Below are positions 1 to 52,677 of a stretch of DNA of 64,000 nucleotides, piece after piece. The notes under the pieces are model-generated. The model saw nothing but the letters and a program-made list of their open reading frames with translations. It did no database searches and was not told the origin of the DNA. A program made the position numbers and the translations under genes. The DNA is taken from positions 1 through 64,000 of the IMG/VR virus record IMGVR_UViG_3300007735_000799, one strand, 5' to 3'. The stretch comes from a virus. How positions within the stretch are numbered: the first letter of the stretch is position 1; each line of letters opens with the position of its first letter.

Positions 1-265
1 TAACGCCGTTTGTTACCCAAAGATTGTTTGCTGTAATTCCTGCATTCATGGTCTGAAGACCCGTGAATGTGTTGCTGCCTGTTACAGCAATTCCTGTTAC
101 TGCACCACTCAACCCGTTAATAGCAGACACATATCCAGCAATTCCAACCGATGCAGGAGTTACCACCGCATCCCAAGCGTAACCGTTCCATATCCAGGTA
201 TTTCCGGAAAAGGTATAGGTTGTTTCGTTGGCAGTTAATCCTGATGTTGGAAAGTTTAAGGGCAT
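1..265 (-). CDS. Tail-fibre-like virion protein, C-terminus cut by window edge
   Basis: The frame opens at an ATG at 263-265 and stays open to base 1, giving 88 visible residues; the rest lies to the left of the window. The visible part is rich in Gly, Thr, Asn and Ala, with a Trp-rich patch (WIWNGYAW) near residue 33 and a run resembling phage fibre and other surface proteins. There is no hydrophobic signal. It follows two fibre-type genes on the same strand and has a CTAAATAA late-type motif about 36 nt upstream, so a structural role in the tail is the likeliest reading. The family is not recognised. Confidence 0.6.
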   Translation of the reverse strand, partial: MPLNFPTSGLTANETTYTFSGNTWIWNGYAWDAVVTPASVGIAGYVSAINGLSGAVTGIAVTGSNTFTGLQTMNAGITANNLWVTNGV

Positions 266-300
266 TATCTAAACCTTATTGCGGTGAAATATTGATAGGA

Positions 301-308
301 TTATTTAG
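301..308 (-). promoter_or_regulatory. Late-promoter-like motif CTAAATAA
   Basis: On the minus strand this reads CTAAATAA, one base from the T4 late -10 box TATAAATA. It lies 36 nt upstream of the ATG at 265 and overlaps the stop codon of the preceding gene. It is one of a set of similar motifs in front of virion-type genes in this window. An 8-base motif can occur by chance. Confidence 0.4.
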
Positions 309-843
309 GTGACTGAGGCTTGAACCCATTGAGAATTTCCCGATGGGCCCAAATACCCTGTGTATAAAACGCCAGTGTCAGTATTGAACCACAAAGCACC
401 ATCAATTATAGGTGCTGGCGCAAGATTCGTAGCCAAATATGATTGCATTATAACCACAGCATCACCAGAAGCAAACCCGCTGGCTCCTGCGTCTCCGGTG
501 GACGCCAAAGCAACCCAAGACCCTACCGAGGTGGAGCCTGTTGTGGACGGCAAGAATCCGTACTGTAAACGAGTATCTCTTTCAATAAACAGATCGCCGT
601 ATTGAAACCAACTTTCGTTTCCTGCGGTTCCGTATACTCCCGCATTTATATCCGCAACAAAATCTGTGTAAGTGTTATACACATAAGTTTTAGATAGTGG
701 ATAATCTTGAACACCGCCTGTAATTCCACCAACAAACAGAGTTCGGTCAAAGGTATTGATTGCCAACTCACCGAAAGATAGAGCCGATGGAACATTGCCT
801 GCGGTTAATCCACGCTTGATTTTAATTTTAATTGGGTCTGCCA

Positions 844-844
<1 letters not shown>
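305..844 (-). CDS. Tail fibre / adhesin-like structural protein
   Basis: This 179-residue protein begins with a short basic strand (IKIKRG) followed by a segment around residues 18-42 of the type LSFGELAINTFDRTLFVGG. That pattern is common at the N-terminus of phage fibre and receptor-binding proteins, where 'GELA..T....LF.G' marks a small beta domain. The C-terminus carries WFNTDTGVLYTG, a motif also seen at the end of the collagen-like protein next door (WINTDTGTLYTY). The two may therefore share a terminal attachment or assembly domain. The start ATG overlaps the upstream stop codon as TAATG, which suggests translational coupling. No enzyme motif is visible. Confidence 0.65.
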
Positions 845-2704
<1,860 letters not shown>

Positions 2705-8552: not shown

Positions 8553-9164
8553 TTATCTGTTGCGTTTCAGCCAAAGATCACCTTCGGCTGCTCTTCTTTT
8601 AATTAATCCTGGTAAAACTTCACCTTTGGACTTATTATATTTTGCTAGTGCTGCTGGAACTTCTTTCCAATGCTCCGAAGAACTTAAAGCCATAGTTATT
8701 GATTCAAACCCACTTTTACCATAAAAACCAGGCCCTACATTATAGGCAAATGAAATCAACGCACTCTGCTGATTGGAATTCATAAGATTCCAATTTGGTA
8801 TCATTTTTAATTTAGGAATCACTTTTGTATTTACATAGTGTTCCATATACTGATCTGCTTGTTGTTTTGATATTCTGTCGCCTTGTTTAACGGGTCTACC
8901 GTCTGGATGAGTAGTTGATCCTTTACCTATAGTCCAAACTTTTCCCGTTTTATCCCAGTATGCCTCAGTTTTAAATCCTTCATATTTTGAAATTAATAGT
9001 TTCCACGCTGTAGTATTTTGATAGGTTTGCTGTGTGGTTTGGGGGCGAGGAGGGGCAGTTGCTGCCATTGCTGGCGATCCTATCGCTATGCTTGCCGCTA
9101 ACGCTGTGGAAAGTAATCCAGCAGAAAGTTTAACTTCATTTACATGCTGTATAAAAGTTTTCAT
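8553..9164 (-). CDS. T4-type lysozyme (GH24) with N-terminal leader
   Basis: The start ATG at 9164 overlaps the upstream stop as ATGA. The 203-residue enzyme cleaves the murein glycan. The GH24 catalytic series is visible as KYEGFKTEAYWDKTGKVWTIG: Glu62, Asp71 and Thr78, matching T4 lysozyme Glu11, Asp20 and Thr26 within one residue. SFAYNVGPGFYG is the usual second block. Unlike T4 lysozyme it has a leader: MKTFIQHVNE resembles a capsid-targeting peptide, followed by an Ala-rich hydrophobic stretch (13-35, ending PAMAATA) that looks like a Sec signal peptide or signal anchor. It could be an exported endolysin or a virion-carried lysozyme. Confidence 0.88.
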   Translation of the reverse strand: MKTFIQHVNEVKLSAGLLSTALAASIAIGSPAMAATAPPRPQTTQQTYQNTTAWKLLISKYEGFKTEAYWDKTGKVWTIGKGSTTHPDGRPVKQGDRISKQQADQYMEHYVNTKVIPKLKMIPNWNLMNSNQQSALISFAYNVGPGFYGKSGFESITMALSSSEHWKEVPAALAKYNKSKGEVLPGLIKRRAAEGDLWLKRNR

Positions 9165-9421
9165 CCCTTCGCTTTCTTCCAAAGATCGGCATCCGCAGTA
9201 GTTCGGGTTTTACCGCCTGTCAAAAACGAGTTTACTCTAGCCAACGCCCATTGTTGAGGAGTCACACCTGGACGATGCCCACCCTTCCAAGCAGCCATGC
9301 CTCGGTCGTAAACTTTCTTTAAAATTGCATAAGATATACCAGATTTAGCGGCTTTATTCTTAACCGCTTTAATACTCTCAGTTATCTCTAGTTCAGTTTT
9401 TAAATCTTTAAAACTCTTCAT
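9161..9421 (-). CDS. Small DUF5824-like phage protein
   Basis: The 86-residue basic protein has the pattern LKKVYDRGMAAWKGGHRPG, TPQQWALARVNSF and TADADLW, a compact domain that I recall from aquatic phages and giant viruses as DUF5824-like. The N-terminus MKSFKDLKTELEITES ends in an ITE site of the prohead-protease type. It is read together with lysozyme (ATGA overlap) and lies 1 nt from the large fusion gene upstream. The conserved Trp, His and Arg positions suggest nucleic acid or protein binding; the real function is unknown. Confidence 0.65.
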   Translation of the reverse strand: MKSFKDLKTELEITESIKAVKNKAAKSGISYAILKKVYDRGMAAWKGGHRPGVTPQQWALARVNSFLTGGKTRTTADADLWKKAKG

Positions 9422-9422
9422 G

Positions 9423-12422
9423 TCATTTCTCCGGATTGTGTCCCCATATTTTCAGGGCTAGTAGTTTACGAGTCGGTTCGCCTTTATCATCACGAAGTGG
9501 CCCCTTGGCTCCCTTCATGCGACTGATAAACGAGATTTGTTTGTTTGCCCATTTCCAATCGCCTGCTTGCCAATCATCTTTCTTTTTGCCAAGCATTCGC
9601 ACGATAGCACGAGCAGAGTCGCGTCCCGAGGTGATTTTACCACCACCAGTTCCTGCCTTGCCTGCTTCTTTGCGAGACAACCCCGCTTCTTTACCGCCCT
9701 GCGAATCAATAAAGTTCTGAAGTTCTTTGGCTCCCATGTTTACAAGTTTAGACCATTCCTTGTAGATGCTATCCTTTTCTTCATCATCCATATCTTCAGC
9801 GATAGCATTTTGACCAGGAGTATCTTTGGCGTAAGTTTTACGAATCTTGTTTGTACCAATCTCTAAAACTTCTTTGAAAATTTTTCGTGACAAACTAGCA
9901 GCATCAGTATATTCATAAAGCATCCATTCAAACTCTTCATCTAAAGAAGATGTTGTGGTTTGAGTAGCATGACTAGCATACATCTGCTGCTTCTGCTCTT
10001 GAATGTATATGTCCCAAGCGGTTTGTTCTTCATGTGTGGAAACCTTGGACTGTAGTTCTCGTGCTCGTTCAATGCGATCACTGTATTTACGGATATCATC
10101 AAGTTCTACTACTTGATCTAAAATTTCTTGTATTTCAAAGGCTTCTGATTTTGTTCCAAACTTTTTGGCAAATGCTATGGAATATTTGGAGCGTCTAGTA
10201 GTTTTCTCAGGATCACCAGGCAATTTCTTCCAAGCCTTAGGATCAGAATCAGAACGAGCCTTTCTATCAGCAAATTGCTTTACTCTAGCCTTGGCGTCTG
10301 CTTTACTCAAACCAGAAACATATTTCTTGGGAAGTCCTGTTTCCTTATCTTTTGGACTTGCGCGTGCTGCATCTTCACTCACGATAAACTCCTCATTTTT
10401 AGATTCTGGTTTGGCGGCTGACATATCTTTTGGATCTACCTGCATTCCTGTTTGACGCAAGAAGCGAAGACCAATAAGAACTTTGTATTCCATATGACTT
10501 CGGTTAGCCAGAGAAAACTTTACATTCTTGTACTCACGACCACCAAACTCTACATCCATCAAAACTATCGGACGAATTTCTCGTTCTTCTGTTCCGCCGC
10601 GCTTAATCTTAATACGACTAACGATAGTCTTGTTTAAACTCTTACCGTTTATCTTAAACGAAACTGTGTGATTCTTTTCGTTAATCTTTATATCTGTAGC
10701 ATCAATAGAATTGTAACCGCTGTTGCCGGTATCAATCTTTGCGTTGTATTCTACACCATCAACAGTAATACTTTCACTAACAGCCACATTACTGAATAGT
10801 TTCCAGTTTGACTTGTTGCTTACATGCTCAATCAAAGCGTCCATCAAGCCTTGTCCTTCAACTTCTTCGGTTGGCTTGCCGTCTTTGTAAAGTGTATAAA
10901 CATTACCGCTTCCTGGCGAAGCGTTCATTTCAATAATGTAAGGTTTGCCGTCTACAACCACATGGTCAACACCAACATAATAACACTTACTTACCAAAGC
11001 AACCTTTTCCACAAGTTCAATCTCTTCTGGACTTAGTTTAAATGCTCCCCCTGAGGAACCCCTAGCAATATTAGTTCTGAAATCGCCTTTAGCCTTGTCA
11101 CGCTTTGCACAGGCGAATATCTTGCCGTTGAGCACGATTGAACGAACATCGTTCTTGAAACCTGGCAAAAACTCTTGGAGGATAACTTCTGCACCAAACT
11201 TCCATAGAGACTGAAGAACAGAACGCAAAGACTTTTCGCTTTCAATAATTGAAACGCCAATACCTTCTGCGCCTGTAACAGTCTTAACCACAACAGGATA
11301 CTTTCCGCCAATAGCCTTCATAGCATTTGCCACTGAATCTTCATTGGAAACAAATGCAGTTCGTGGGTGTGGCAGGTTATACTTCTGAAGGGCTAGAGCA
11401 GTCTGCAACTTGTTTGCACAAATCTCCATAGCACCCTTTTCGTTAACCATGAACACACCATTGTTCTGTAGAATTGTAGCGAGACCAATACCAAGTTCAG
11501 AATTCATTACACCGCCACGCACAAAACATAGGGTGTTCTGTGGTTTAATCACAATCTTCTTGGTGTCTTCGCCTTCAGTAATTTGAATGGTAACTTTATC
11601 GCCGCTGGCTTCCATTGAATTGATGAGAGCATACTTCATCTTGATTACATGAAATTCTATGCCCTTTTTCTTGCAGGACTTTTCCATCTTCTCAATTGAA
11701 GAGCCTTCTGTGCCACCTTCAGCAGAAGTCAAGCAAAGCAAAGTTACATCAGATGACTTTTCTTCCCATAGCCATTCTTCTTTTAATTGCATGCCCTTCT
11801 TGACTGCCATGAAAATCTTCTTGGCTTCAGCATCCTTCACATGCGCGGGTACGCCTGCGCGGAACGCATCAAAGTCTCCGTCAAATACTGCTTTACGCAT
11901 CTTGGATGCTGACATGCCTTGCACACCTTCTGCATCAGGATCACGAGCACCAGCACTAATAACCTTGAAGTCTGAGAACTTGTAGCCCTCGGTACTCTTG
12001 GGATCAAGATCAATGTATTGCTTAATCTTGTTGTATTCTGCCACATGATCTGCGCCTGTGACAATACGAACTTTAGTGTAGCCAGCATCACTCAACTTCT
12101 GTGCAATAGCATAAGGCCCCGCAACCGTCTTGCCATCCTTGTTTGGGAAAGGTTTTGGCATCAGTTGAAACTTCATCTTGGGAAAGAACTTCTTTAAAGT
12201 CTCAAGTTTAGTTTTTGCGTCTAGCGGATTCTTCTTTGGATCTTGCGAGTAGGAAGCGTAAATGCAAAACTCAGCACCAATCTTTTGGGCTTCTTCCATC
12301 ACCTTGTTTACAAGAACTTCGTGTCCTGTGGTTGGTGGATTGAAGCGTCCAACACCAATAACTATAGATTTCTCTTTCTTAGGTGCTTCGGTAATGATCT
12401 GTGTAATTTTTTTCACTTCCAT
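9423..12422 (-). CDS. NMNAT-like / ATP-grasp / retropepsin-like fusion protein
   Basis: This 999-residue protein joins several recognisable parts. Residues 1-13 (MEVKKITQIITEA) resemble a capsid-targeting leader with an ITE site. Residues 18-212 are a nucleotidyltransferase of the NadM/cytidylyltransferase type, with GRFNPPTTGHE at 25-35 and SASKMRK at 171-177. Residues 225-540 look like a RimK-type ATP-grasp ligase: VVKTVTGAEGIGV, LQEFLPG, the ARGSSGGAF loop and IIEMNASPG at 496-504. Residues 546-660 resemble the RimK-partner aspartic protease fold, with DTGNSG at 564-569 and LIGLRFL at 649-655. A basic region (688-757) and a C-terminal domain (885-999) are not recognised. It overlaps the 409-residue gene upstream by 10 nt, so the two are probably made together. 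Joint function is unknown. Confidence 0.8.
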   Translation of the reverse strand: MEVKKITQIITEAPKKEKSIVIGVGRFNPPTTGHEVLVNKVMEEAQKIGAEFCIYASYSQDPKKNPLDAKTKLETLKKFFPKMKFQLMPKPFPNKDGKTVAGPYAIAQKLSDAGYTKVRIVTGADHVAEYNKIKQYIDLDPKSTEGYKFSDFKVISAGARDPDAEGVQGMSASKMRKAVFDGDFDAFRAGVPAHVKDAEAKKIFMAVKKGMQLKEEWLWEEKSSDVTLLCLTSAEGGTEGSSIEKMEKSCKKKGIEFHVIKMKYALINSMEASGDKVTIQITEGEDTKKIVIKPQNTLCFVRGGVMNSELGIGLATILQNNGVFMVNEKGAMEICANKLQTALALQKYNLPHPRTAFVSNEDSVANAMKAIGGKYPVVVKTVTGAEGIGVSIIESEKSLRSVLQSLWKFGAEVILQEFLPGFKNDVRSIVLNGKIFACAKRDKAKGDFRTNIARGSSGGAFKLSPEEIELVEKVALVSKCYYVGVDHVVVDGKPYIIEMNASPGSGNVYTLYKDGKPTEEVEGQGLMDALIEHVSNKSNWKLFSNVAVSESITVDGVEYNAKIDTGNSGYNSIDATDIKINEKNHTVSFKINGKSLNKTIVSRIKIKRGGTEEREIRPIVLMDVEFGGREYKNVKFSLANRSHMEYKVLIGLRFLRQTGMQVDPKDMSAAKPESKNEEFIVSEDAARASPKDKETGLPKKYVSGLSKADAKARVKQFADRKARSDSDPKAWKKLPGDPEKTTRRSKYSIAFAKKFGTKSEAFEIQEILDQVVELDDIRKYSDRIERARELQSKVSTHEEQTAWDIYIQEQKQQMYASHATQTTTSSLDEEFEWMLYEYTDAASLSRKIFKEVLEIGTNKIRKTYAKDTPGQNAIAEDMDDEEKDSIYKEWSKLVNMGAKELQNFIDSQGGKEAGLSRKEAGKAGTGGGKITSGRDSARAIVRMLGKKKDDWQAGDWKWANKQISFISRMKGAKGPLRDDKGEPTRKLLALKIWGHNPEK

Positions 12423-13642
12423 TCCTTTGCTAGATTAAAGTTGTTCTTGGAGAACTCGTTGCGATCAACAAGTTTCACAATACTACATGTCTTACCACAA
12501 ACTGCTACGAAACCTTCAGGTGCGGTTGGACGATATCCGTCCTTGTCTGCAATAAAGGTTGAGACACTTTGGGTAAGAGAAAGTTTAGAGATAACCAAAC
12601 TCTTAGCCTTGGCTATGAGTGCGTGAAGTGCAAATAGTTTATCAATTTGAGAAGCGTAAGCCTGTAGATACTTGGTGATTCTCGCGCCTTTTTCCTGCTT
12701 CTCTTTCTTCTTAACTTCAGTTTTTAGTGCGTCTGCTTCAGTAGCAAGACGAGCCTGAATGAATGTTGCAAGACCGTTTGTGGTATTGTTTGAAAGTCCT
12801 GCTCGTACTGTGGCGTTGATATACTGCGACACATACTCGGATGCTTCACTCTTGTTGAATGAACCTAAAGCAGACTTCAAGTTCTTGGCTTCCGCCTCAA
12901 TCTGTTTTGTGAGAACAGCAATCTGTTTTTCTTCTGAGGTTTGAAGCAAAAGATTCTTTGGTAGAGTTGGAACCTTGGCATCCACAACCCATACTCCTGT
13001 GGATGTTCCCATTGCAGGAACACCAGGCGACCATGATCCGCGCTCTTTAGGATCGCCACTACCACTCCATTTAGTATGGAACACAATACCAAACTTAGCA
13101 GCGGCTACTTCTATTCCTGTGGGACTATCCGCAGGAACAGCGTATGTAATTGTGTTAGGACGGAAGGTGATGTAACTCTTGCCGTCAATAGTTTCTTTTT
13201 TCTTCTCGCCTTGTGTAAACAGCAAGTCGCCCCAAACCATGCCCTTGATGTTTAGTGGCTTTAGATACTTTAAAGCGTCTATTAGTTTAGCAACCACACC
13301 ACCTTCGTGGTTGGCTTTGATATCTGCTTCTGTATAGTTAACTTTTGAAGTCTTAGAAAAGAAAGACTTGGTAGCCACAAAGAACTTTTTAGTGTCAGGA
13401 TGAATGCCTGCAATAAGAGCAGGAGCCCCGTCCCATTTTGTGGATACATTCAAAGACGGAACAGCCTTTCCTGTTGAGGAAACGCCGCTAACAACATCTT
13501 TTAAAATTTTAATGGATGCTTGTAACCCATCCCAACCCTGCTCAAACATACCGTCTTCAAGGTGGCTAATGTGACCACCTTTGTTTTCTTTAACGGCTTC
13601 TGTTATGGATTCAGGAGTTGAAAATGAAGAAAAGTTTAGCAT
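12413..13642 (-). CDS. DUF6267-like protein with ligase-type KxDG motif
   Basis: The 409-residue protein resembles hypotheticals of T4-like aquatic phages that I recall as DUF6267. STKWDGAPALIAG (67-79) looks like motif I of covalent nucleotidyltransferases (K-x-D-G, where the Lys takes AMP). FFVATKSFF (87-95), GMVWGDLLF (134-142) and FGIVFHTKW (184-192) lie where ligase motifs III, IIIa and IV might fall. The match is partial, so activity is inference. The N-terminus MLNFSSFSTPESITEA has an ITE-A site. The C-terminal half is helical. A CATAAATATG motif lies just before the ATG. It is followed directly by the NMNAT/ATP-grasp fusion gene. Confidence 0.65.
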   Translation of the reverse strand: MLNFSSFSTPESITEAVKENKGGHISHLEDGMFEQGWDGLQASIKILKDVVSGVSSTGKAVPSLNVSTKWDGAPALIAGIHPDTKKFFVATKSFFSKTSKVNYTEADIKANHEGGVVAKLIDALKYLKPLNIKGMVWGDLLFTQGEKKKETIDGKSYITFRPNTITYAVPADSPTGIEVAAAKFGIVFHTKWSGSGDPKERGSWSPGVPAMGTSTGVWVVDAKVPTLPKNLLLQTSEEKQIAVLTKQIEAEAKNLKSALGSFNKSEASEYVSQYINATVRAGLSNNTTNGLATFIQARLATEADALKTEVKKKEKQEKGARITKYLQAYASQIDKLFALHALIAKAKSLVISKLSLTQSVSTFIADKDGYRPTAPEGFVAVCGKTCSIVKLVDRNEFSKNNFNLAKEWK

Positions 13643-13663: not shown

Positions 13664-14173
13664 TCACTCCTCCTCCACCCATCTTGACCAAGTTTTCGGG
13701 CCCATATGGTCAATGATAGTCATTACAATCATCTTCCTGTTGGGAACAATAGGAGGCTTGGCTAGAGGCATCTTGGCTTCCTGTGGGGTTCGGTTAGCCT
13801 TCCTGTAGTTGCATCTACGGCAGGAAGCCACCACATTCTTCCACTCAAACTTACCACCACGGCTAGCAGGCAACACATGGTCAATGGTTCCGTTGGCGGC
13901 ATTCAAGGTGCAACCACAATACTGACATTCAAACTTGTCACGACGAAACACTCCTTTACGAGTTGCTCCCTTGACCCTATACGGCAGGTTCACATACTCC
14001 ACCAACACAATTGCGGTGGGTAGTTCATAGTGCCCTCGGGGTGTGGGAATACGATAGAAGTCATCGTGACCATAAGGCTTGGCGGCTTTTCCTGAACACA
14101 GGAGATTAACCGCCCGCTTCCAATCAATCACATTTAAGACTTCCTCGCTAGCGTTTAGGAGGAGAACCTTCAA
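13664..14173 (-). CDS. HNH endonuclease
   Basis: The 169-residue protein carries a full HNH nuclease core: FECQYCG (zinc Cys pair), GTIDHVLPASRGG (the catalytic His in DHV), EWKNVVASCRRCN (Asn and second Cys pair) and YRKANRTPQEA. Homologues are common as free-standing nucleases in bacteria and phages. The start is a TTG at 14171-14173, three codons after the upstream stop, with GAAGG as ribosome site; no suitable ATG precedes the conserved MKVLLLNASEEVLNVIDW start. It could be a homing or a genome-maintenance nuclease. Confidence 0.85.
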   Translation of the reverse strand: MKVLLLNASEEVLNVIDWKRAVNLLCSGKAAKPYGHDDFYRIPTPRGHYELPTAIVLVEYVNLPYRVKGATRKGVFRRDKFECQYCGCTLNAANGTIDHVLPASRGGKFEWKNVVASCRRCNYRKANRTPQEAKMPLAKPPIVPNRKMIVMTIIDHMGPKTWSRWVEEE

Positions 14174-14897: not shown

Positions 14898-14925
14898 ATT
14901 ATATCTCTTATTACTGATGTGTCAA
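14898..14925 (-). promoter_or_regulatory. Sigma70-like promoter, consensus -35 and -10
   Basis: TTGACA (14925-14920), 16 nt, TATAAT (14903-14898) on the minus strand. Both hexamers match the bacterial consensus. The ATG at 14891 is at the expected start point. Confidence 0.8.
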
Positions 14926-16340
14926 GACCAATCAGCAAAATCTCTCTTTTTAAATTTGTCGGTCATGCGTTCACGAAAACTTTTAAATTCTCCTGTTTCT
15001 TCATCTTCATCGGTCTTTTCAGGCATGTTAATAATTCCGCGTTGAGCAGATTCATCCAAGTCAAAAAGTTTCATTTTGCTGCGATCAATACCAACCACGA
15101 ATCGGCGATTTGCCGCAGGATCAGCATAACGATTCTTAAGTTGCTTAATCATAATTTGACCAAGCCCCTGAAGTTCTTCGGTTGAAACCAAGGCAAACAT
15201 GAAATCGGCGGTTTGTGGTAGACCGAACGATTCGCTGGTATCAGTTAGTTCAACATCCGTGCTAGAGAATCCTGAACGATTGGTTTGTGTTGCAGTAAAG
15301 ATAGGCACACCGGTTTCAACCGCAAGACCGCGCAACTCTTCAGCAATTGCCTTGATAAAGGTGTACGAATTCACCGTGGCACTCTGCTTCATGCGAGCCG
15401 ACGCACAGATATTCAGGTAATCAATAAAGATAATCTCAGGTGTAAAATTACGCTTGAGACGAAGTTCATCTAATAGATGCTTGAAGTGCATGGCACTTGC
15501 TGTCGCGGTAGGATACTCTTTGATAATGAGTTTACCTGTAGTTTGTTCCATGATACGATTCAATTTTCGGTCGTAGATATCCTTGGGCAAAGCCTTCAGA
15601 TCGTCTAGAGCGGTATCCATTAGATTAGCATCAATACGCTCTGCAATTCGCTCTTCTGCCATTTCGCAAGTAATGTACAAAACATTCTTGCCTTGCATCA
15701 GACAGTTAGCCGCATGATGACACAAGAATAGAGACTTACCGACACCAGTGCCTGCGAGACATACATTCAAGGTCTTGTAAGGCGTACCGTTGTTTGTAAT
15801 CTTGTTAAGCAGATCAATATCAAACGGAATACGCTTCTCTACGGTATGATAGAAGTGATATCGCTTGTCTGCATCTTCAATGAAATCGTGACCGATATGA
15901 GTATCAAAACTAACTGCAAGAGCAGTAGAAAGGATACTTGGAATAGCAGTCTTCGTTTTGTCTTTGGACTTTCCATCAATAATTTGAATGGATTCCATGA
16001 TGCCATTATAGAGTGCCTTTTCTTTGCAGAACTCTTCGGTATTGTCTAGCAACCATTGAGTTTCCAACTTATCGTGAGTCTTGAATGACTTGATGATATC
16101 CCGAATAGCCTTGAATTCAGTTTCGCTTAAGTTGTCTCGCTTGCTCAAATCAATAAGAAGACTCTCAACTGTGGGCTGCTTGTTGTACTTGGTATAAAAA
16201 GTACTGATACAATCGTAGATGACTCGCTCATCCCGCTCTGTAAAGTATTCAGGCTTTAAAAACGGAAGAACCTTGCGCCCGTACTCTTCATCGTGGAGTA
16301 GAGTTCGCAGAATGAGAATTTCTGTTCTATCGTTAGTCAT
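14922..16340 (-). CDS. 41: Replicative DNA helicase, T4 gp41-like
   Basis: The 472-residue protein is a DnaB-type ring helicase, close to T4 gp41 (475 residues). The N-terminal part has LHDEEYGRKVLPFLKPEYF. The Walker A is GTGVGKS at 197-203, Walker B is PEIIFIDYLNI, and the arginine-rich end has LKNRYADPAANRRFVVGIDR. It unwinds the fork and works with the gp61 primase encoded at 4 kb. The ATG sits 7 nt after a sigma70 -10 box with AGGA in between, so the message may be leaderless. The C-terminus is acidic, then basic. Confidence 0.95.
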   Translation of the reverse strand: MTNDRTEILILRTLLHDEEYGRKVLPFLKPEYFTERDERVIYDCISTFYTKYNKQPTVESLLIDLSKRDNLSETEFKAIRDIIKSFKTHDKLETQWLLDNTEEFCKEKALYNGIMESIQIIDGKSKDKTKTAIPSILSTALAVSFDTHIGHDFIEDADKRYHFYHTVEKRIPFDIDLLNKITNNGTPYKTLNVCLAGTGVGKSLFLCHHAANCLMQGKNVLYITCEMAEERIAERIDANLMDTALDDLKALPKDIYDRKLNRIMEQTTGKLIIKEYPTATASAMHFKHLLDELRLKRNFTPEIIFIDYLNICASARMKQSATVNSYTFIKAIAEELRGLAVETGVPIFTATQTNRSGFSSTDVELTDTSESFGLPQTADFMFALVSTEELQGLGQIMIKQLKNRYADPAANRRFVVGIDRSKMKLFDLDESAQRGIINMPEKTDEDEETGEFKSFRERMTDKFKKRDFADWS

Positions 16341-45739: not shown

Positions 45740-45811
45740 AGCCATCTGTGGGATTCGAACCCACGACCTCCAGATTACAAATCAGGTGCACTACCACTGT
45801 GCTAAGATGGC
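45740..45811 (-). tRNA. tRNA-Thr (anticodon UGU)
   Basis: Standard cloverleaf with acceptor GCCATCT/AGATGGC, T-loop TTCGAAT and anticodon loop TTTGTAA. One T-T mismatch sits in the anticodon stem. It reads ACA and first wobble codons. Confidence 0.93.
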
Positions 45812-45816
45812 GAAAG

Positions 45817-45889
45817 TAGTCCCTATAGGATTCGAACCTACAACTTCTTCCGTGTAAAGGAAGCACTCTAGCCGTTGAGTTAAGGGACT
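45817..45889 (-). tRNA. tRNA-Val (anticodon UAC)
   Basis: Acceptor AGTCCCT/AGGGACT, anticodon arm CTTCC-TTTACAC-GGAAG, T-loop TTCGAAT. A complete type I tRNA; the gene follows tRNA-Leu(UAG) by 5 nt. Confidence 0.95.
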
Positions 45890-45894
45890 ATTAG

Positions 45895-45976
45895 TGTCGG
45901 TGGAGGGAGTCGAACCCACACGCCTTGCGGCAAAAGAACCTAAATCTTTCGTGTATGCCAATTTCACCACACCGAC
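45895..45976 (-). tRNA. tRNA-Leu (anticodon UAG)
   Basis: Type II tRNA with a long variable arm. Acceptor GTCGGTG/CACCGAC, anticodon arm AAAGA-TTTAGGT-TCTTT. It reads CUA. Confidence 0.93.
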
Positions 45977-45982
45977 TATTTG

Positions 45983-46516
45983 TTACTTCTTGACCTTGGT
46001 TTTCTTTGCCTTCTTTGCTAAAGACTTCTTAACCTTGGCAACCATTTCCTTTAGTTCCGGCGGAGACATGGCATTAGTTTCCAAGAGAGCGGCTACACGA
46101 GCATCTTCCTCTTTCTCTGCCTGTGTCTCTAGGGTCTTTTCTTCGCCATCAAGTTCCTTGCAGTATTCCACAAGTGCGGCTTGACACGCTGCTTCGCTAA
46201 CAAAAGGCCCATGAAACTTTGCCCATGTTTCATCCCAAAAAATCCAACCGCCGTGCTTGGGAGAATACTCTACAGGATCGTGGCGACCAATAGCAATAAA
46301 GTTTTTCTCGGCTGCTTTAGGCTTGCCCCATTCGCACATCACCTTCTCGTTGTTCTTTATCCACATCTCAACATCAAAGTCAAACGGATAGTGCTTCAGC
46401 AAATCACGAGCAGTCTTGCGAATTGCGTCCTTGCCCATCTTGGTGTTGCTCATAAGTTCCTTCAGAAACTCTGAAGTCTTCACAACAGCCCGATAAGATT
46501 CATATGGTAGCGTCAT
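45983..46516 (-). CDS. Uncharacterised protein with BPSL0761-like N-terminus
   Basis: The ATG at 46514-46516 is chosen, with AGGAG 12 nt upstream; the longer frame covers another gene. The 177-residue product starts MTLPYESYRAVVKTSEFLKEL and continues KTARDLLKHYPF, a pattern of the small BPSL0761-like domain (AVxxTxEFLxxL...LRHYP). The rest has GRHDPVEYSPKHGGWIFWDE and a very Lys-rich helix at the C-terminus. The function is unknown; the basic tail may bind nucleic acid. Confidence 0.6.
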   Translation of the reverse strand: MTLPYESYRAVVKTSEFLKELMSNTKMGKDAIRKTARDLLKHYPFDFDVEMWIKNNEKVMCEWGKPKAAEKNFIAIGRHDPVEYSPKHGGWIFWDETWAKFHGPFVSEAACQAALVEYCKELDGEEKTLETQAEKEEDARVAALLETNAMSPPELKEMVAKVKKSLAKKAKKTKVKK

Positions 46517-46697
46517 TGTATAGTTTCTCCTTCCTACGAGACTGTCGCTCGTAGGCTTTGAATAGTCCTTCACTAAATCCTGCATGCTTGCCGTGACCGT
46601 ATCCTTGAGAATACGCCCAAGTATATAACTTTATTTGTGAAGCGGCGAGAGCAGAAATTCCCGAAATGATGAAAAAGATTGTTGCTATGGTTTCCAT
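46500..46697 (-). CDS. Small membrane protein
   Basis: The ATG at 46697 (METIATIFFIISGISALAAS) starts a 65-residue protein; longer frames run through two tRNA genes. Residues 4-22 form one hydrophobic span. The rest is polar with SQGYGHGKHAGFSEGLFKAYERQ, similar to the short Gly/Tyr repeats (YxxGYxxG) found in small phage proteins, and then basic. It overlaps the next gene by 17 nt. Function unknown. Confidence 0.6.
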   Translation of the reverse strand: METIATIFFIISGISALAASQIKLYTWAYSQGYGHGKHAGFSEGLFKAYERQSRRKEKLYNDATI

Positions 46698-46733
46698 ATC
46701 AGTAATTAGTTTAAAACACAATCTGAACAAAAG

Positions 46734-46819
46734 TGCGAGAGGTGGGATTCGAACCCACACGCCTTTAGAGGGCAGCGGATTTTGAATCCGCCGTGTATGC
46801 CAATTCCAGCCACTCTCGC
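46734..46819 (-). tRNA. tRNA-Leu (anticodon CAA)
   Basis: Type II tRNA. Acceptor GCGAGAG/CTCTCGC, anticodon arm GCGGA-TTCAAAA-TCCGC, T-loop TTCGAAT. Reads UUG. Confidence 0.93.
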
Positions 46820-46825
46820 AAACAG

Positions 46826-46898
46826 TAGGATCGGTGGGATTCGAACCCACACTTTACGGATTTTAAATCCGTTGACTCTGCCGTTGGTCTACGATCCC
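46826..46898 (-). tRNA. Type I tRNA with anticodon UAA (Leu by code)
   Basis: Acceptor GGGATCG/CGATCCT, anticodon arm ACGGA-TTTAAAA-TCCGT, T-arm GTGGG-TTCGAAT-CCCAC. The variable region has only 5 nt, whereas bacterial tRNA-Leu is type II. It may be a leucine tRNA of odd shape or a tRNA charged with another amino acid that reads UUA. Confidence 0.8.
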
Positions 46899-46899
46899 A

Positions 46900-47805
46900 T
46901 TACTTTCGGACATTCGGATATTTTGTTAAAAAGTCCTCAATAGTTTTCTTTAGACCAGTCTTCAAGTCAGTAAATTTAAAATCAGGGAAGTAAGTAGTGA
47001 ACAAGGTATTGTTTGTTGGCTTTCTTATTATACCTTCAGGCTTGGTTTTGTCAAACACTAATTCGCCAGAAAAGCCAAGTTCAGAAATTATAATTTCAAC
47101 CGCTTCACGAATGCTCCACTCTTTACCTGGAGAAACAATCATCATATCAGGAGTTGAGCGTTCATCAACATGAATCATTTGTAAAATTCTACCAAGGTCT
47201 TGGGAAAATACAAATTCACGAAGAGCCTTGCCTTCACCCCAAACGGTAAAAGGTTGATTATTAATCTTTGAAAGATAGCAACGATGAATAAGACTTGGAA
47301 GAACATGACCGTTTTCCATATCGTAATTATCATTTACTCCGTAAAGATTGCAGGGAATAATACACTTTGCATTAACCATGTATTGTTCTCGCAAACTTCT
47401 TGCTCCCACTTCTAAAATTCGCTTTGCGTAAGCGTATCCGTAATTTGTGGGATGTGGTTCGCCGTTGTGAATCTGATCTTCGGTTAGTGGATAATGAGCA
47501 AACTCAGGAAAGATACAAGTAGACAACAAAAAGGTTGCTCGGTTAACTTCTCTACAAGCCTTGATGATGTTTGCATTGATAGTTAGATTCTCAACAAGAA
47601 AATCGTTGATGAACTGCTTGTTGGATTTAACTCCACCAACTTTTCCTGCACAATGAACAACATCTGTAATCTTGTGGTCACGAATGTAACTAATCAGTTG
47701 TTCATAGTTGGTTAGATTAACTTCTTTGCGAGTCGGCTTAAGACCAAAAGGAACTGAGGTTCCTACAAGTCCTGCTCCACCTGTGATTAGATAACGCTTT
47801 TCCAT
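46900..47805 (-). CDS. GDP-L-fucose synthase / colitose reductase-like SDR
   Basis: The 301-residue protein starts YLITGGAGLVGTSV, has VVHCAGKVGGVKSN, LLSTCIFPE (active Ser and the conserved Cys), then HPTNYGYAYAKRI (Tyr-x3-Lys) and IPCNLYGVNDNYDMENGHVLPSL. This matches the epimerase-reductase WcaG/Fcl, which turns the product of GDP-mannose dehydratase into GDP-L-fucose. The ColC enzyme of colitose synthesis has the same form. A gmd gene is 4 kb away. tRNA genes lie on both sides. Confidence 0.83.
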   Translation of the reverse strand: MEKRYLITGGAGLVGTSVPFGLKPTRKEVNLTNYEQLISYIRDHKITDVVHCAGKVGGVKSNKQFINDFLVENLTINANIIKACREVNRATFLLSTCIFPEFAHYPLTEDQIHNGEPHPTNYGYAYAKRILEVGARSLREQYMVNAKCIIPCNLYGVNDNYDMENGHVLPSLIHRCYLSKINNQPFTVWGEGKALREFVFSQDLGRILQMIHVDERSTPDMMIVSPGKEWSIREAVEIIISELGFSGELVFDKTKPEGIIRKPTNNTLFTTYFPDFKFTDLKTGLKKTIEDFLTKYPNVRK

Positions 47806-47812
47806 ATTTAAA

Positions 47813-47884
47813 CTGGCTCGGCTGGATTCGAACCAGCAACCTATCCGTTAACAGCGGATCGCACTACCGTTGTGCTACGAGCCA
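47813..47884 (-). tRNA. tRNA-Asn (anticodon GUU)
   Basis: Acceptor TGGCTCG/CGAGCCA with discriminator G, anticodon arm ATCCG-CTGTTAA-CGGAT, T-loop TTCGAAT. Complete type I tRNA. Confidence 0.95.
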
Positions 47885-47889
47885 CCTTT

Positions 47890-48054
47890 TTAGATTTGCT
47901 TTTCCCGCTTAATCCAAAGCGGAAGAATGCCACGATCTTCTAGTTTACGAAGAGTTTCCTTCTTCGCATTCAGCAGAAGTTCCTGACGACGAATCCTACG
48001 AGATTCATAACGACGCTTACGGCGTCTGCGAAGTTCTCTCATCTTGTCTATCAT
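47890..48054 (-). CDS. Small very basic protein
   Basis: This 54-residue gene starts at ATG 48052-48054 inside the end of the next gene (38-nt overlap) and stops at 47890. The product is Arg-rich (MRELRRRRKRRYESRRIRR at 5-23) and then helical with LLLNAKKETLRKLEDRGILPLW. It may bind DNA or RNA. It ends 6 nt before tRNA-Asn. No family is recognised. Reality is supported by steady coding-like sequence and position, but no clear ribosome site is seen. Confidence 0.5.
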   Translation of the reverse strand: MIDKMRELRRRRKRRYESRRIRRQELLLNAKKETLRKLEDRGILPLWIKREKQI

Positions 48055-48652
48055 TGTTTAAACCTTTCTTCTTCATAAGATGCTTCACCCAAATTTCAGT
48101 CACAGTCATTGGATGATGAAATTCCTCAAACTTGAAACCGCTAATTGGTTCCTTGTTCTTGGTCTTGAGTGCAGTATAGATGCCGTTCAATCGGTTAGGC
48201 TTGAATTCACCAACAGGTTCTTCCTTGCCGAGACCAGGCCATGCTTCTGCTTTGGTTCCAATTACTAAACCTTGTGGTGATGCGGGCGACTTGAAGAATA
48301 TGGCATCCTGCTCATACTTCGCACCCATCTTCTTGGCAAAGCCCTTGATGGCTCCGCTCTTTGTAGCACTATCATCATCACCTATAATCATAAACGACTC
48401 TTCGGTAACACGACGCTTCTTGCCGTCACCAAGATCTTCTTCGTAAGTGCCAATCACTTTCTCAAAACCAAAACCTGCCGCACGAATATCGTTTTCCAAC
48501 TTCTTGTTGAGTCCACGATTCACCGACAGCGAATTGCTACCACGGAATGCGGTAAGCAAAGCAAACGGTCGCTTCTCAACATGTGAGAACACGCGAGACA
48601 GCGAGATTTCTGTAATCAATTCTTTGCGATAGGTTTCAATTTCTTCAGACAT
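48017..48652 (-). CDS. Uncharacterised protein, DUF3293-like pattern
   Basis: The 211-residue protein has FSHVEKRPFALLTAFRGSNSLSVNRGLNKKLENDIRAAG, partly like the DUF3293 layout (a Thr-Ala-x-R/N start, a run of N-x-x-N helices, then GxGxxxVxGxY). ESFMIIGDDDSATKSGAIKGFAKKMGAKYEQDAIFF follows, as in that group. The N-terminus has ELITEIS near residue 12. The C-terminal ILTSQTP-like end is low in structure. Function unknown. The gene overlaps its neighbour upstream by 8 nt. Confidence 0.55.
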   Translation of the reverse strand: MSEEIETYRKELITEISLSRVFSHVEKRPFALLTAFRGSNSLSVNRGLNKKLENDIRAAGFGFEKVIGTYEEDLGDGKKRRVTEESFMIIGDDDSATKSGAIKGFAKKMGAKYEQDAIFFKSPASPQGLVIGTKAEAWPGLGKEEPVGEFKPNRLNGIYTALKTKNKEPISGFKFEEFHHPMTVTEIWVKHLMKKKGLNNDRQDERTSQTP

Positions 48653-48830
48653 TTGTGGCTCCCCTGATTTCTTCTGTGGACTGCTTTAACTCCAAGTAAA
48701 CTTTTCGTATCTCTTCAAACGCTTGCCCTGCCGTAAACTTTCCGTTCAGTTCCCATTCAACAATACGAGCAGCGCGTCTAGCAAATTCTCCAATGTTCGC
48801 ATGTGCTGCGAAGTCTTCAATATCCATCAT
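48645..48830 (-). CDS. Small uncharacterised helical protein
   Basis: The ATG at 48830 follows GGAGAAAG, a good ribosome site; the longer frame to 48959 lies upstream of it and is less likely. The 61-residue protein is alpha-helical (IEDFAAHANIGEFARRAARIVEW, FTAGQAFEEIRKVYLELKQS). A sigma70-type promoter lies 62 nt upstream inside the preceding gene's end. Function unknown. Confidence 0.6.
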   Translation of the reverse strand: MMDIEDFAAHANIGEFARRAARIVEWELNGKFTAGQAFEEIRKVYLELKQSTEEIRGATNV

Positions 48831-48891
48831 CTTTCTCCGAATGCGACCCGTCAAACAACACGACGGCTCTGGTAAGTAAGGTATAGTGTTT

Positions 48892-48920
48892 AGTATACCG
48901 TCACTTTCCCTTCGGTGCAA
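48892..48920 (-). promoter_or_regulatory. Sigma70-like promoter
   Basis: TTGCAC (48920-48915), 17 nt, TATACT (48897-48892) on the minus strand, ahead of the small gene at 48645-48830. The -35 box is one base from the window's usual TTGACt. Confidence 0.5.
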
Positions 48921-49035
48921 TTTTTTTATTTGCTTTCTTCTTTTTCTTAAAAATTGCATCCCAATTCTTTGACCATAGATCGTAATCTACCTTACGGTAT
49001 CTATCTCCCTTACCTGCTGCGTGCTTGCCGCTCAT
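48901..49035 (-). CDS. Small basic conserved phage protein
   Basis: This 44-residue gene starts at ATG 49033-49035, overlapping the purA stop as ATGA with GGAGG 4 nt upstream, and stops at 48901. The product starts MSGKHAAGKGDRYRKVDY and then DLWSKNWDAIF, a pattern I recall from small proteins of T4-like aquatic phages, followed by a Lys-rich tail. The function is unknown. Confidence 0.7.
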   Translation of the reverse strand: MSGKHAAGKGDRYRKVDYDLWSKNWDAIFKKKKKANKKIAPKGK

Positions 49036-50033
49036 AACGCCTCCTGGTGGGCTGAGAAGGTTATGCTGTGGATGTTTGACCCATCATCTTGGGCTTCTCC
49101 CATAGCATCAATTATAAAAACCTTCATCTCTCCCAAATCTTTAAAATTGTGTAGAGTTCCCTTGTGATAAACTTTAAAAAATCCCACCTTTTCCAAAACA
49201 TCGCACTTGTTGATAATAAGTTCTGTGCAACCAGACAGAGTTATAGATTGAATCAGTTTATCAAGATTCAACCAATTTACCAAACGCTTTCTGCCGGTTG
49301 TGGTTCCGAACTCACCGCCTGCTTGCAGTACAGCATCAAGTTCCTTGTCATCCCACAGCGATGATGGAAACAGGGGATCGGTTCCACTCTTGGTATCGTA
49401 AATCTTAGCCACACCAATCAGTCTACTAATCTTATGTGGTGAGAAGCCAAGAGAACAAGCACCGTAAGGCATGGTTGTGCTGCTTGTGACATACGGATAA
49501 TCTCCGTGGTCAATATCTAACCAAACGCTCTGTGCTCCTTCGCACAAAATCTTTCCGCGCAACTCATCCTTCAGCAACCATTGCGAATCAAAAACATCCT
49601 TGGCTTGTTTGCCACGACGCAACATCTTGTCGGAATAGCATGGAGCAATGCCTTGCTTGGTTGTGCCAAGATAACCAAGATGCTTGGTATCGTATTCAAT
49701 ATGCTCAGGTGTAATAATATGAGCGTTCGGATGAATCTTAATGAGCGAAGTGTTAAAGCCTTCGCTGCGAAGATACCGAATCTCTTCAAAGAACTTATCA
49801 GGATTGATTACACAACCTGGCCCAATCACACATTGCTTGTCAGCAAAGATGCCAGACGGAACAAGATGAGTCTTGTATCGCTTGCCGTTTCGGTAAACAG
49901 TATGCCCCGCGTTTGGGCCACCGTTCCAACGACACACGCAATCATACTTTTCGGCAAGAGCATTGGCAATCTTGCCTTTGCCTTCGTCGCCCCAAGCAAG
50001 ACCGTAAATCACATCCGCATAATCAATCATCAT
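49032..50033 (-). CDS. purA: Adenylosuccinate synthetase-like protein (PurA)
   Basis: The ATG at 50033, with GGAG 5 nt upstream, gives 333 residues; the frame continues into tRNA-Pro and is not used. The P-loop GLAWGDEGKGKIANAL and WNGGPNAGHTVY (catalytic Asp and His) are intact, and GTTKQGIAPCYSDK, LCEGAQSVWLDIDHGDYPYVTSS and GEFGTTTGRKRLVNWL follow. It forms adenylosuccinate from IMP and Asp, the first step to AMP. The length is nearer to archaeal PurA and phage PurZ than to E. coli PurA (432). Keeping the Asp argues for IMP rather than the PurZ substrate. guaC lies directly upstream. Confidence 0.85.
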   Translation of the reverse strand: MMIDYADVIYGLAWGDEGKGKIANALAEKYDCVCRWNGGPNAGHTVYRNGKRYKTHLVPSGIFADKQCVIGPGCVINPDKFFEEIRYLRSEGFNTSLIKIHPNAHIITPEHIEYDTKHLGYLGTTKQGIAPCYSDKMLRRGKQAKDVFDSQWLLKDELRGKILCEGAQSVWLDIDHGDYPYVTSSTTMPYGACSLGFSPHKISRLIGVAKIYDTKSGTDPLFPSSLWDDKELDAVLQAGGEFGTTTGRKRLVNWLNLDKLIQSITLSGCTELIINKCDVLEKVGFFKVYHKGTLHNFKDLGEMKVFIIDAMGEAQDDGSNIHSITFSAHQEAL

Positions 50034-50043
50034 AAATCTCCAG

Positions 50044-50117
50044 TCGGAGAAACAGGATTTGAACCTGCAACCTCTTGCACCCAAAGCAAGCGCACTACCA
50101 AGTTGTGCTACTCTCCG
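50044..50117 (-). tRNA. tRNA-Pro (anticodon UGG)
   Basis: Acceptor CGGAGAG/TTCTCCG (one G-U pair), anticodon arm CTTGC-TTTGGGT-GCAAG, T-loop TTCAAAT. Reads CCA. Confidence 0.95.
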
Positions 50118-50121
50118 AGAA

Positions 50122-50193
50122 AGCGGGTAGAGGGATTCGAACCCTCGGCAATTGGTTTGGAAAACCAACACTCTACCACTGAGTTATACCCGC
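50122..50193 (-). tRNA. tRNA-Gly (anticodon UCC)
   Basis: Acceptor GCGGGTA/TACCCGC, anticodon arm TTGGT-TTTCCAA-ACCAA, T-loop TTCGAAT. A TATAAT box lies about 10 nt upstream (50206-50211), but no clear -35 box. Confidence 0.95.
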
Positions 50194-50214
50194 GAAAAGT
50201 CCGAGCCATTATAG

Positions 50215-51273
50215 TTAGGTGAAAATATTATTGAGTTGACGGTTAACTCGGACAAATGTTGTACATTTTGGCAAGTCCTTCAGACGAGCAGCACCAACAT
50301 AAGTGCAAGCCGAACGAACTCCACCAAGAATCTGTTGAATCACTCCTGAAACAGGCCCAACAGGCTTGACAAGTACTCGCTTGCCTTCTGCTGCACGATA
50401 GGTTGCCACGCCGCCTGAATGCTTTTCCATTGCTGTAGCGGAACTCATGCCGTAGAACTCCTTGCCGTCCTCGGTTTCTTCGCCTGCGGCTTCATCGGTT
50501 CCTGCAAACATACCACCAATCATTACAAAGTCTGCGCCCGCGCCGAACGCCTTGGCTACATCACCGGGGCAGGTGCATCCGCCGTCAGACAGCACATAGC
50601 CGCCTAGCCCGTGTGCAGCATCAGCACACTCCATGATGCATGACAACTGCGGGTAGCCCACACCAGCAACCTTGCGTGTCGTGCAGACTGATCCTGGCCC
50701 AATTCCAATCTTGACAATGTTTGCACCTGCAATAATCAGGGCTTCAGTCATTTCTCGCGTCACCACATTGCCTGCAATTAGAATGTGATCGGGAAACAAC
50801 CCACGAATGGTACGAACATAATTCACAAACTTTTCCGTGTACCCGTTAGCCACATCAATACAGATAAACTTGATGGACTTGTGGCGGTTGAGAATTCGTT
50901 CAGCCTTTTGAATCTCTTGCATACTAGAATTAGCATCGCCCATGCCCAAGGTGTACACCACATTAGGCGACCAATTAACATGAGAGGTTAACCAGTCGGT
51001 CATAAAGGTATCCCATTCGGCTTCGGTGTAATACTTATGAACACCGCATAGAGCATTGAATTCTGCTAGACTCTTAGCCATCTCAAATGTGCCAACTGTA
51101 TCCATGTTGGCAGCAACAACAGGAACGCCTGTCCACTCTTGTTCCATGTTGTCTGGAAGTTTAAATTTAAATGTTCGTTCAACATCAACCTTGCTACGAC
51201 TATCCAAATTGCTTCGCTTTGGACGAATAAGAACATCTGCAAAATCAAGTTTCACATCATCTTCAATTTTCAT
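50215..51273 (-). CDS. guaC: GMP reductase
   Basis: The 352-residue protein matches GuaC (347 in E. coli): [69 protein letters not shown] (catalytic Cys in GSVC) and [42 protein letters not shown] is the GuaC rather than the IMPDH form of the flap. It converts GMP to IMP using NADPH. With PurA it would shift guanine nucleotides to adenine nucleotides. It stops 22 nt from tRNA-Gly. Confidence 0.93.
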
Positions 51274-51279
51274 GGGTTT

Positions 51280-52269: not shown

Positions 52270-52306
52270 AGTTTCCTCATGGTTAAAAGATCATTTAGTG
52301 ACGAGT

Positions 52307-52314
52307 TTATTTAG
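52307..52314 (-). promoter_or_regulatory. Late-promoter-like motif CTAAATAA
   Basis: CTAAATAA on the minus strand immediately follows the tRNA-like RNA and lies 38 nt before the gmd ATG. The same text (GTCTAAATAAACTC) recurs at 54707-54714. Confidence 0.45.
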
Positions 52315-52554: not shown

Positions 52555-52626
52555 TGACCCCAACGGGACTCGAACCCGTGTCAGAAGAGTGAAAGTCTTC
52601 GATCCTTGCCGCTAGACGATGGGGCC
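52555..52626 (-). tRNA. tRNA-Glu (anticodon UUC)
   Basis: Acceptor GGCCCCA/TGGGGTC (one G-U pair), anticodon arm GAAGA-CTTTCAC-TCTTC, T-loop TTCGAGT. First RNA after a strong promoter. Confidence 0.95.
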
Positions 52627-52645
52627 AAGTAACTTCAACTAGAGT

Positions 52646-52673: not shown

Positions 52674-52677
52674 GGGA

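What the first reader, a model, noticed from the sequence alone, without database searches (positions are those of the whole stretch)
9423..13642. NMNAT/ATP-grasp/retropepsin fusion next to a ligase-motif protein: candidate undescribed system
A single 999-residue protein joins a nucleotidyltransferase, a RimK-type ATP-grasp ligase and an aspartic-protease-like domain. It is followed in the operon by a 409-residue protein with a KxDG motif. All of these bind nucleotides or amino-acid tails. The layout suggests NAD-related or peptide-tail chemistry (for example glutamate-tail ligation and removal). Both start with head-targeting-type leaders, so they could be injected into the host with the DNA. 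I know of no described system with this set.
Basis: partly seen in the sequence, partly recalled or inferred. Interest (0 to 1): 0.85.

Follow-up and report, generated by a model that had tools for sequence, protein, structure and literature searches.

The report
Phage glutamate-tail writer–eraser fusion enzyme
A T4-like virus of bacteria encodes one long protein that joins a nucleotide-transferring enzyme, an enzyme that adds glutamate tails and a protease that trims them, and both it and its partner protein start with the short tag that T4 uses to load proteins into the virus head, so they are probably delivered into the host with the viral DNA.

Summary
ORF F (9423-12422, minus, 999 aa) is, in order, an HxGH-type nucleotidyltransferase (NTase), a RimK-type ATP-grasp ligase, a RimB/RloA-type retropepsin and an accessory C-terminus. 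ORF D (12413-13642, minus, 409 aa, DUF6267) overlaps it and has invariant KxDG, EGxV and K ligase-type motifs. In 30 non-redundant NTase-RimK-retropepsin fusions from unisolated phages, the residues expected for catalysis are invariant or nearly so, including the two arginines that the retropepsin RloA needs to cleave polyglutamate. This supports glutamate-tail ligation and trimming. NAD chemistry is not supported specifically. D and the NTase are an old syntenic pair, known in cyanophages as T4-GC_71/190. RimK-retropepsin occurs separately in phages Mosig and YerA41, so the fusion joins two separable modules. Both families carry T4-like capsid-targeting leaders (D 80/88, NTase 34/46, against 7-12% in controls). 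A cyanophage NTase homologue with such a leader was found in virions, and the YerA41 relative is recorded as a particle protein. I found no annotated phage with the full fusion and no paper on a phage RimK/RimB pair. Substrate, direction and target remain unknown. New variant of a known kind.

The parts
9423..12422 (-). ORF F, 999 aa: NTase + RimK ATP-grasp + retropepsin + C-terminal accessory region
   Evidence: AF2 model pLDDT 73; Foldseek to RimK
12387..12422 (-). Leader of F, MEVKKITQIITE|A: T4 capsid-targeting-like, predicted prohead-protease cut after E12 (inferred)
   Evidence: pLDDT below 50 at residues 1-15; leader motif in 34/46 non-redundant NTase ORFs against 12% in control stretches; L/I-x-E rule from PMC9026906
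11778..12377 (-). HxGH-superfamily nucleotidyltransferase domain (residues 16-215), GRFNPPTTGH ... MSASKMR
   Evidence: S-CREM2 gp154 homologue E=8e-47
10803..11747 (-). RimK-type ATP-grasp ligase domain (residues 226-540); K338, K380, D486, E498, N500 invariant
   Evidence: Foldseek 5zct E=4e-18, TM 0.75-0.80 to RimK structures
10425..10784 (-). RimB/RloA-type retropepsin domain (residues 547-666); D564 of DTG, R617 and R641 invariant
   Evidence: RloA D48/R114/R137 (PMC12239564)
9426..10397 (-). C-terminal accessory region (residues 676-999): DUF5824-like piece, linker, DUF3140/DUF6321-like end
   Evidence: some homologues, such as L017, lack or replace it
12413..13642 (-). ORF D, 409 aa, DUF6267, ligase-type nucleotidyltransferase motifs
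   Evidence: AF2 pLDDT 81
13598..13642 (-). Leader of D, MLNFSSFSTPESITE|A
   Evidence: leader motif in 80/88 non-redundant D proteins against 7% in control stretches
13427..13438 (-). KWDG, motif I of D (K69-G72)
   Evidence: at least 99% conserved at K, D and G in 87 non-redundant homologues
12506..12517 (-). EGFV, motif IV of D (E376-V379); K390 nearby as motif V
   Evidence: local alignment to T4 Rnl1 EGYVAVMKDGSHFKI (not significant)
9161..9421 (-). Small DUF5824 ORF directly downstream, leader MKSFKDLKTELEITE|S
   Evidence: E=3.5e-19; an ORF with a similar leader follows F in relative G001
8553..9182 (-). Phage lysozyme ORF with CTS-like leader MKTFIQHVNE
   Evidence: (E=7e-27)

Best explanation
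F is a glutamate-tail editing enzyme that T4-like phages load into their heads. Its leader, like that of D, directs it to the prohead core; the prohead protease cuts after I-T-E; and F enters the host with the DNA (inferred from the leaders and from virion data on homologues). In the cytoplasm the RimK-type domain uses ATP to add glutamates to the C-terminus of a protein, and the fused retropepsin trims or limits those tails, as RimK and RimB do to ribosomal protein S6 in bacteria (inferred from conserved residues). The target is unknown; S6 or another translation protein is the first candidate. The NTase and D act together on a nucleotide or RNA-end substrate that I cannot name, and the fusion of the NTase to RimK-RimB in this clade suggests that the two activities serve the same early host-takeover step. 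Shown here: architecture, purifying selection, conserved catalytic residues, recurrence, leader enrichment. Not shown: enzymatic activity, target, or presence of this protein in its own virion.
For: RimK and retropepsin assignments by family models, PDB sequence search and, for RimK, fold. Catalytic and polyglutamate-coordinating residues invariant in 30 non-redundant fusions, mapped to RloA D48/R114/R137. RimB removes polyglutamate from RpsF and stimulates RimK. 520 IMG/VR stretches encode a relative of the RimK-retropepsin part; D directly precedes the NTase ORF in most loci where both were found. dN/dS 0.03-0.10 in every domain of F. Leaders: D 80/88, NTase 34/46 against 7-12%; the RimK proteins of Melnitz and Mosig also start with such leaders. 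gp21 and gp23 in relatives, with ...YLKE|AAPTN in gp23. S-CREM2 gp154, with leader MKNFSSFLTEA, is an NTase homologue detected in virions with 3 unique peptides. The YerA41 RimK-retropepsin protein is annotated structural in a phage whose particle proteins were found by LC-MS/MS.
Against: No activity or target is known. The S-CREM2 authors say their non-structural hits could be contaminants, and ribonucleotide reductase is also noted in YerA41 particles. This virus record lacks gp21 and gp23, being a fragment. The leader of F itself has I rather than an aromatic residue and fails the strict pattern. RimK relatives ligate glutamate to other things too (F420, methanopterin). TATAAATA is no commoner than chance, so late expression was not shown.
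Confidence: 0.58

Rival explanations
1. NAD supply or counter-defence: the NTase is an NMN adenylyltransferase that restores NAD+ early in infection, and the other domains are ancillary.
For: GxxxPxTxxH and SxxxxR motifs (G25, P29, T31, H34, R176 invariant); cyanophage papers call homologues NMNAT.
Against: Profile closest to UPF0348 (E=4e-4), then RibF and PPAT, with a nicotinamide-nucleotide adenylyltransferase only at E=0.41; no NAPRTase/Nampt in 7 related records, although most are fragments; Pfam score below cut-off; does not explain the invariant RimK and retropepsin residues.
Confidence: 0.15
2. RNA or tRNA repair: D is a divergent RNA-ligase-type enzyme and, with the NTase, mends or modifies RNA cut by host defences; the RimK-RimB part is a separate add-on.
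For: KxDG, EGxV and K invariant; local match to motifs IV-V of T4 Rnl1; sub-threshold fold hits to Trl1 and phage RNA ligases; NTase profile resembles UPF0348, which from memory is the tRNA-modifying TmcAL family.
Against: No significant fold match in the PDB; hhalign against 35 T4 proteins does not put the ligases first.
Confidence: 0.2
3. The enzymes are made after infection and act there; the leaders are incidental and virion detection of homologues is carry-over.
For: Authors' own caveat; D and F sit near the replicative helicase gene, as in other phages, not in the capsid block.
Against: Leader motif retained in 80/88 divergent D proteins and present on unrelated neighbours; the D leader changes fast (dN/dS 0.36-0.51 in three comparisons, 0.08 in a fourth) yet keeps the motif.
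Confidence: 0.2
4. The tail editing acts on a phage protein or a polyglutamylated cofactor rather than on a host protein.
For: RimK-family enzymes also tail cofactors (NCBIfam hits MptN, CofF); a gp22-like scaffold in one relative has a run of seven glutamates.
Against: Conserved R617 and R641 match the RloA residues that coordinate polyglutamate peptides; no phage target was identified.
Confidence: 0.2

Closest known systems
RimK/RimB (RimABK) of Pseudomonas and the bacterial RimBK hybrid (Little et al. 2025, PMC11957791)
   Same: ATP-grasp alpha-L-glutamate ligase paired with a retropepsin that trims polyglutamate; fusion of the two already known in bacteria
   Different: Here RimK comes first and retropepsin follows (RimBK has RimB at the N-terminus); extra NTase, C-terminal region and capsid-targeting leader; encoded by phages
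RloA/RloC of Pseudomonas aeruginosa (PMC12239564)
   Same: Retropepsin with DTG and two polyglutamate-coordinating arginines, beside an ATP-grasp gene
   Different: RloA is secreted through a signal peptide and has a transglutaminase-like partner; neither was seen here
RimK-retropepsin proteins of Pelagibacter phage Mosig and Yersinia phage YerA41
   Same: Two-domain protein, same order, 27% identity over about 440 residues
   Different: No NTase fused; annotated only as glutathione synthetase-like or structural protein
T4-GC_71 (DUF6267) and T4-GC_190 (cytidyltransferase) of cyanophages
   Same: Same adjacent gene pair, near helicase gp41; an NTase homologue seen in virions
   Different: No RimK or retropepsin attached in the annotated phages
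T4 Alt and internal proteins IPI-III
   Same: N-terminal targeting peptide, L/I-x-E cleavage, ejected with DNA
   Different: Unrelated enzyme domains

Membership tests
RimK alpha-L-glutamate ligase family | TIGR00768/PF08443 match above the curated cut-off | tested here: met
   144.6 against 143.4 bits; 100.5 against 21 bits
RimK alpha-L-glutamate ligase family | RimK fold with ATP- and metal-binding residues | tested here: met
   Foldseek 5zct E=4e-18; K338, K380, D486, E498, N500 invariant; residue roles assigned from known ATP-grasp enzymes
RimK alpha-L-glutamate ligase family | ATP-dependent addition of glutamate | not testable with these tools
   needs enzyme assay
RimB/RloA retropepsins (PF05618) | Family match above cut-off and catalytic DTG | tested here: met
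   46.1 against 27 bits; D564 30/30
RimB/RloA retropepsins (PF05618) | Arginines that coordinate polyglutamate (RloA R114, R137) | tested here: met
   R617 and R641 aligned through 9g58, invariant
RimB/RloA retropepsins (PF05618) | Active as a dimer on polyglutamate | not testable with these tools
   needs enzyme assay and structure
NMN adenylyltransferase | GxxxPx(H/T)xxH and SxxxxR motifs | tested here: met
   motif definition from memory; shared by the wider HxGH superfamily
NMN adenylyltransferase | Closer to NMNAT than to other HxGH enzymes | tested here: not met
   UPF0348, RibF and PPAT rank above NMNAT; not filed as an NMNAT
KxDG ligase/capping superfamily | Motif I KxDG, motif IV EGxV, motif V K invariant | tested here: met
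KxDG ligase/capping superfamily | Ligase-type NTase fold | tested here: inconclusive
   no PDB match at E<0.1; weak ligase hits only
T4-type capsid-targeted proteins | N-terminal leader ending L/I-x-E | tested here: met
   consensus
T4-type capsid-targeted proteins | gp21-type prohead protease in the same phage | tested here: inconclusive
   found in relatives G001 and G003 that carry F; absent from this partial record
T4-type capsid-targeted proteins | Present and cut in virions | not testable with these tools
   homologue S-CREM2 gp154 detected in virions

The most novel reading that the evidence does not exclude
A whole group of unisolated T4-like phages injects a preformed glutamate-tail writer and eraser, joined to a nucleotidyltransferase and paired with a ligase-type enzyme, to reprogramme a host protein (perhaps the ribosome) before any phage gene is expressed: a post-translational takeover chemistry not previously described for viruses.
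Probability: 0.33. Interest if true: 0.87.

Novelty: new variant of a known kind. Interest (0 to 1): 0.64.

Why it matters
T4 Alt, an ADP-ribosyltransferase, is the textbook case of a modifying enzyme delivered from the phage head. A polyglutamylation writer-eraser in the same role would be a second chemistry, in phages common enough to give more than 500 hits in viral metagenomes. It would also help explain why a 'cytidyltransferase' keeps turning up in cyanophage virions, and would turn two old orphan gene families (T4-GC_71 and T4-GC_190) into testable ejected enzymes.

Tried and rejected
Foldseek of D against the PDB gave nothing significant. hhalign of D against 35 T4 proteins did not rank the ligases first. 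A profile of D against PDB sequences gave only chance hits. TATAAATA late-promoter scan equal to chance. A loose leader pattern over all ORFs separated weakly (36 against a null of 15); a strict pattern did better in this genome (14 against 2.2, maximum 7 of 1000 shuffles) and less well in relative G001 (7 against 1.7, maximum 6). No full three-domain fusion in the annotated phages. D absent from plasmids. In genome contigs the two hits with RimK followed by retropepsin (L234, L235) look like phage contigs placed in bins, and one Saccharibacteria ORF (L247) has the RimBK order. The literature search found no phage RimK/RimB pair, within an open-access library only. Rejected: chance or assembly artefact (recurrence in many contigs, dN/dS).
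Full report
WHAT IS THERE. D (12413-13642, 409 aa) comes first and its end overlaps the start of F (9423-12422, 999 aa) by 10 bases. The replicative helicase gene (14922-16340) lies upstream, with an HNH endonuclease ORF (13664-14173), a tRNA gene and small ORFs between. Downstream are a small DUF5824 ORF (9161-9421) and a lysozyme (8553-9182). The window is part of a 119,266-base virus record. Its DNA polymerase is about 50% identical to those of marine T4-like cyanophages.

DOMAINS OF F. Residues 3-224 match the PHROG cytidyltransferase families (E=4e-54). Residues 337-506 match RimK (Pfam E=1e-28; TIGR00768 just above its cut-off), and the best PDB relatives are RimK enzymes. Residues 556-666 match PF05618, the family misnamed 'Zn_protease' that holds the retropepsins RimB and RloA. 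The C-terminus has DUF3140 and weaker DUF5824/DUF6321-like pieces. A 999-residue AF2 model (pLDDT 73) matches RimK structures at E=4e-18 with TM 0.75-0.80 to the target. ATP-grasp enzymes filled the 50 rows shown, so the retropepsin fold was not seen separately; that assignment rests on sequence.

HOW GENERAL. The full fusion was first found in IMG/VR loci (26 loci hold a relative, some of them cut by a contig end), and 520 candidate stretches encode a relative of the RimK-retropepsin part. From the fetched loci I aligned 65 distinct fusions, 30 of them below 90% identity to each other. Invariant in all 30 are G25, P29, T31, H34 and R176 of the NTase; K338, K380, D486, E498 and N500 of the ATP-grasp; and D564 of the retropepsin DTG. 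R617 and R641 are near-invariant by the same measure (97% or more). Aligned through PDB 9g58, with the 20-residue offset fixed by the catalytic aspartate, these two are RloA R114 and R137, whose mutation impairs polyglutamate cleavage (PMC12239564). dN/dS is 0.03-0.10 in each domain of F. So all three catalytic domains are kept under selection. The annotated phages contain no such fusion.

D. It is DUF6267. In 87 non-redundant homologues K69, D71, G72, E376, G377, V379, K390 and R394 are at least 99% conserved. K-x-D-G, E-G-x-V and K are the signatures of motifs I, IV and V of the ligase/capping superfamily (established knowledge). The best local match of the D profile to T4 RNA ligase 1 falls on Rnl1 EGYVAVMKDGSHFKI, but it is not significant, and the ligases do not rank first among 35 T4 proteins. 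The AF2 model is good (pLDDT 81) yet has no significant PDB match. Ligases appear only below threshold. I call D a probable, unproved, divergent ligase-type nucleotidyltransferase.

TWO MODULES, NOT ONE OBLIGATE SYSTEM. In most IMG/VR loci where both were found, D is followed directly or closely by an ORF that starts with the NTase domain; the stand-alone NTase ORFs vary widely in length, up to 1796 aa. Some D loci show no NTase within reach. In cyanophages D and NTase are T4-GC_71 and T4-GC_190, and fused D-NTase proteins are known to PHROGs and BFVD. Conversely, RimK-retropepsin proteins without NTase occur in Pelagibacter phage Mosig and Yersinia phage YerA41, and RimK without retropepsin in Methylophilales phage Melnitz. 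The window protein joins the two modules. Two loci in bacterial bins have RimK followed by retropepsin (L234, L235; the latter sits beside T4-like replication genes), whereas a Saccharibacteria ORF has the opposite order, as in the RimBK hybrid of Desulfotalea (PMC11957791).

LEADERS. T4 puts proteins into its head with an N-terminal capsid targeting sequence that gp21 cuts after L/I-x-E (PMC9026906). F begins MEVKKITQIITE|A, and D begins MLNFSSFSTPESITE|A. Among non-redundant homologues, F/Y/L/W followed by [ILVM]xE occurs in 80 of 88 D leaders and 34 of 46 NTase leaders, against 7% and 12% for stretches drawn at random from the same proteins. Examples are MKFTEYLTEGKEG and VKNFAQHITEA. The RimK proteins of Melnitz (LTQKFSQFITEE) and Mosig (MQVQPFKNYLEEA) share the pattern. 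Relatives carrying F have gp21 and gp23, and the gp23 of G001 shows ...YLKE|AAPTN at a plausible cut. The strict MK-type leader is enriched genome-wide in the window's virus (14 ORFs against 2.2 in shuffles, maximum 7 of 1000) and less clearly in relative G001 (7 against 1.7, maximum 6).

VIRION DATA FROM OTHERS. In Synechococcus phage S-CREM2, gp154 is an NTase homologue (E=8e-47), starts MKNFSSFLTEA, and was detected in virions with three unique peptides (PMC10665884); the authors warn of possible carry-over. The YerA41 RimK-retropepsin protein is annotated as a structural protein in a phage whose 63 particle-associated proteins were found by LC-MS/MS. I could not see the supplementary list itself.

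MECHANISM. RimB removes polyglutamate from RpsF and stimulates RimK (PMC11957791). With conserved catalytic and polyglutamate-coordinating residues, the plainest reading is that the phage protein adds and trims glutamate tails on a protein after delivery from the head. Ribosomal protein S6 is a candidate by analogy only (roughly 0.2). The NTase substrate is open: its profile ranks UPF0348 first, then RibF, PPAT and NMNAT, and no NAPRTase was found in seven related records, several of them fragments, so NAD supply is not favoured. Confidence by step: architecture 0.97; packaging in the head 0.75; polyglutamate chemistry 0.7; host target rather than phage target or cofactor 0.6.

NOVELTY. RimK, RimB and their bacterial hybrid are known, as are T4-type ejected enzymes and the D-NTase gene pair. 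The NTase-RimK-retropepsin fusion with a capsid-targeting leader was not found in any annotated phage, nor a phage RimK/RimB pair in the open-access papers searched. I rate it a new variant of a known kind.

Noticed in passing
virus record G000 66155-73753 and 96168-98102 (minus), beyond the window: Runs of ORFs with T4-like capsid-targeting leaders (MKDYWQLRETLSEA, MKSFKTHLTEA and similar); the five I scanned have no Pfam match. Candidate unknown ejected head proteins.
   Followed up: partly
L028 (IMGVR_UViG_3300045125_000034): F and D are each split into several ORFs by frameshifts although the pieces still align well; probably a sequencing-error-rich contig.
   Followed up: no
L052:7897-10893: A second NTase paralogue fused to about 800 residues of unknown sequence follows the D-NTase pair in some phages.
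   Followed up: partly
L214, gp22-like scaffold ORF 210-1307 (minus): A run of seven glutamates (AEEEEEEEVK) in the head scaffold of a relative that carries F.
   Followed up: no
window 8553-9182 (minus): Lysozyme with a CTS-like leader followed by a hydrophobic signal-like stretch (MKTFIQHVNEVKLSAGLLSTALAASIAIGSPAMAA).
   Followed up: no
window 45740-55473: 16 of the 17 tRNA genes lie in this stretch.
   Followed up: no
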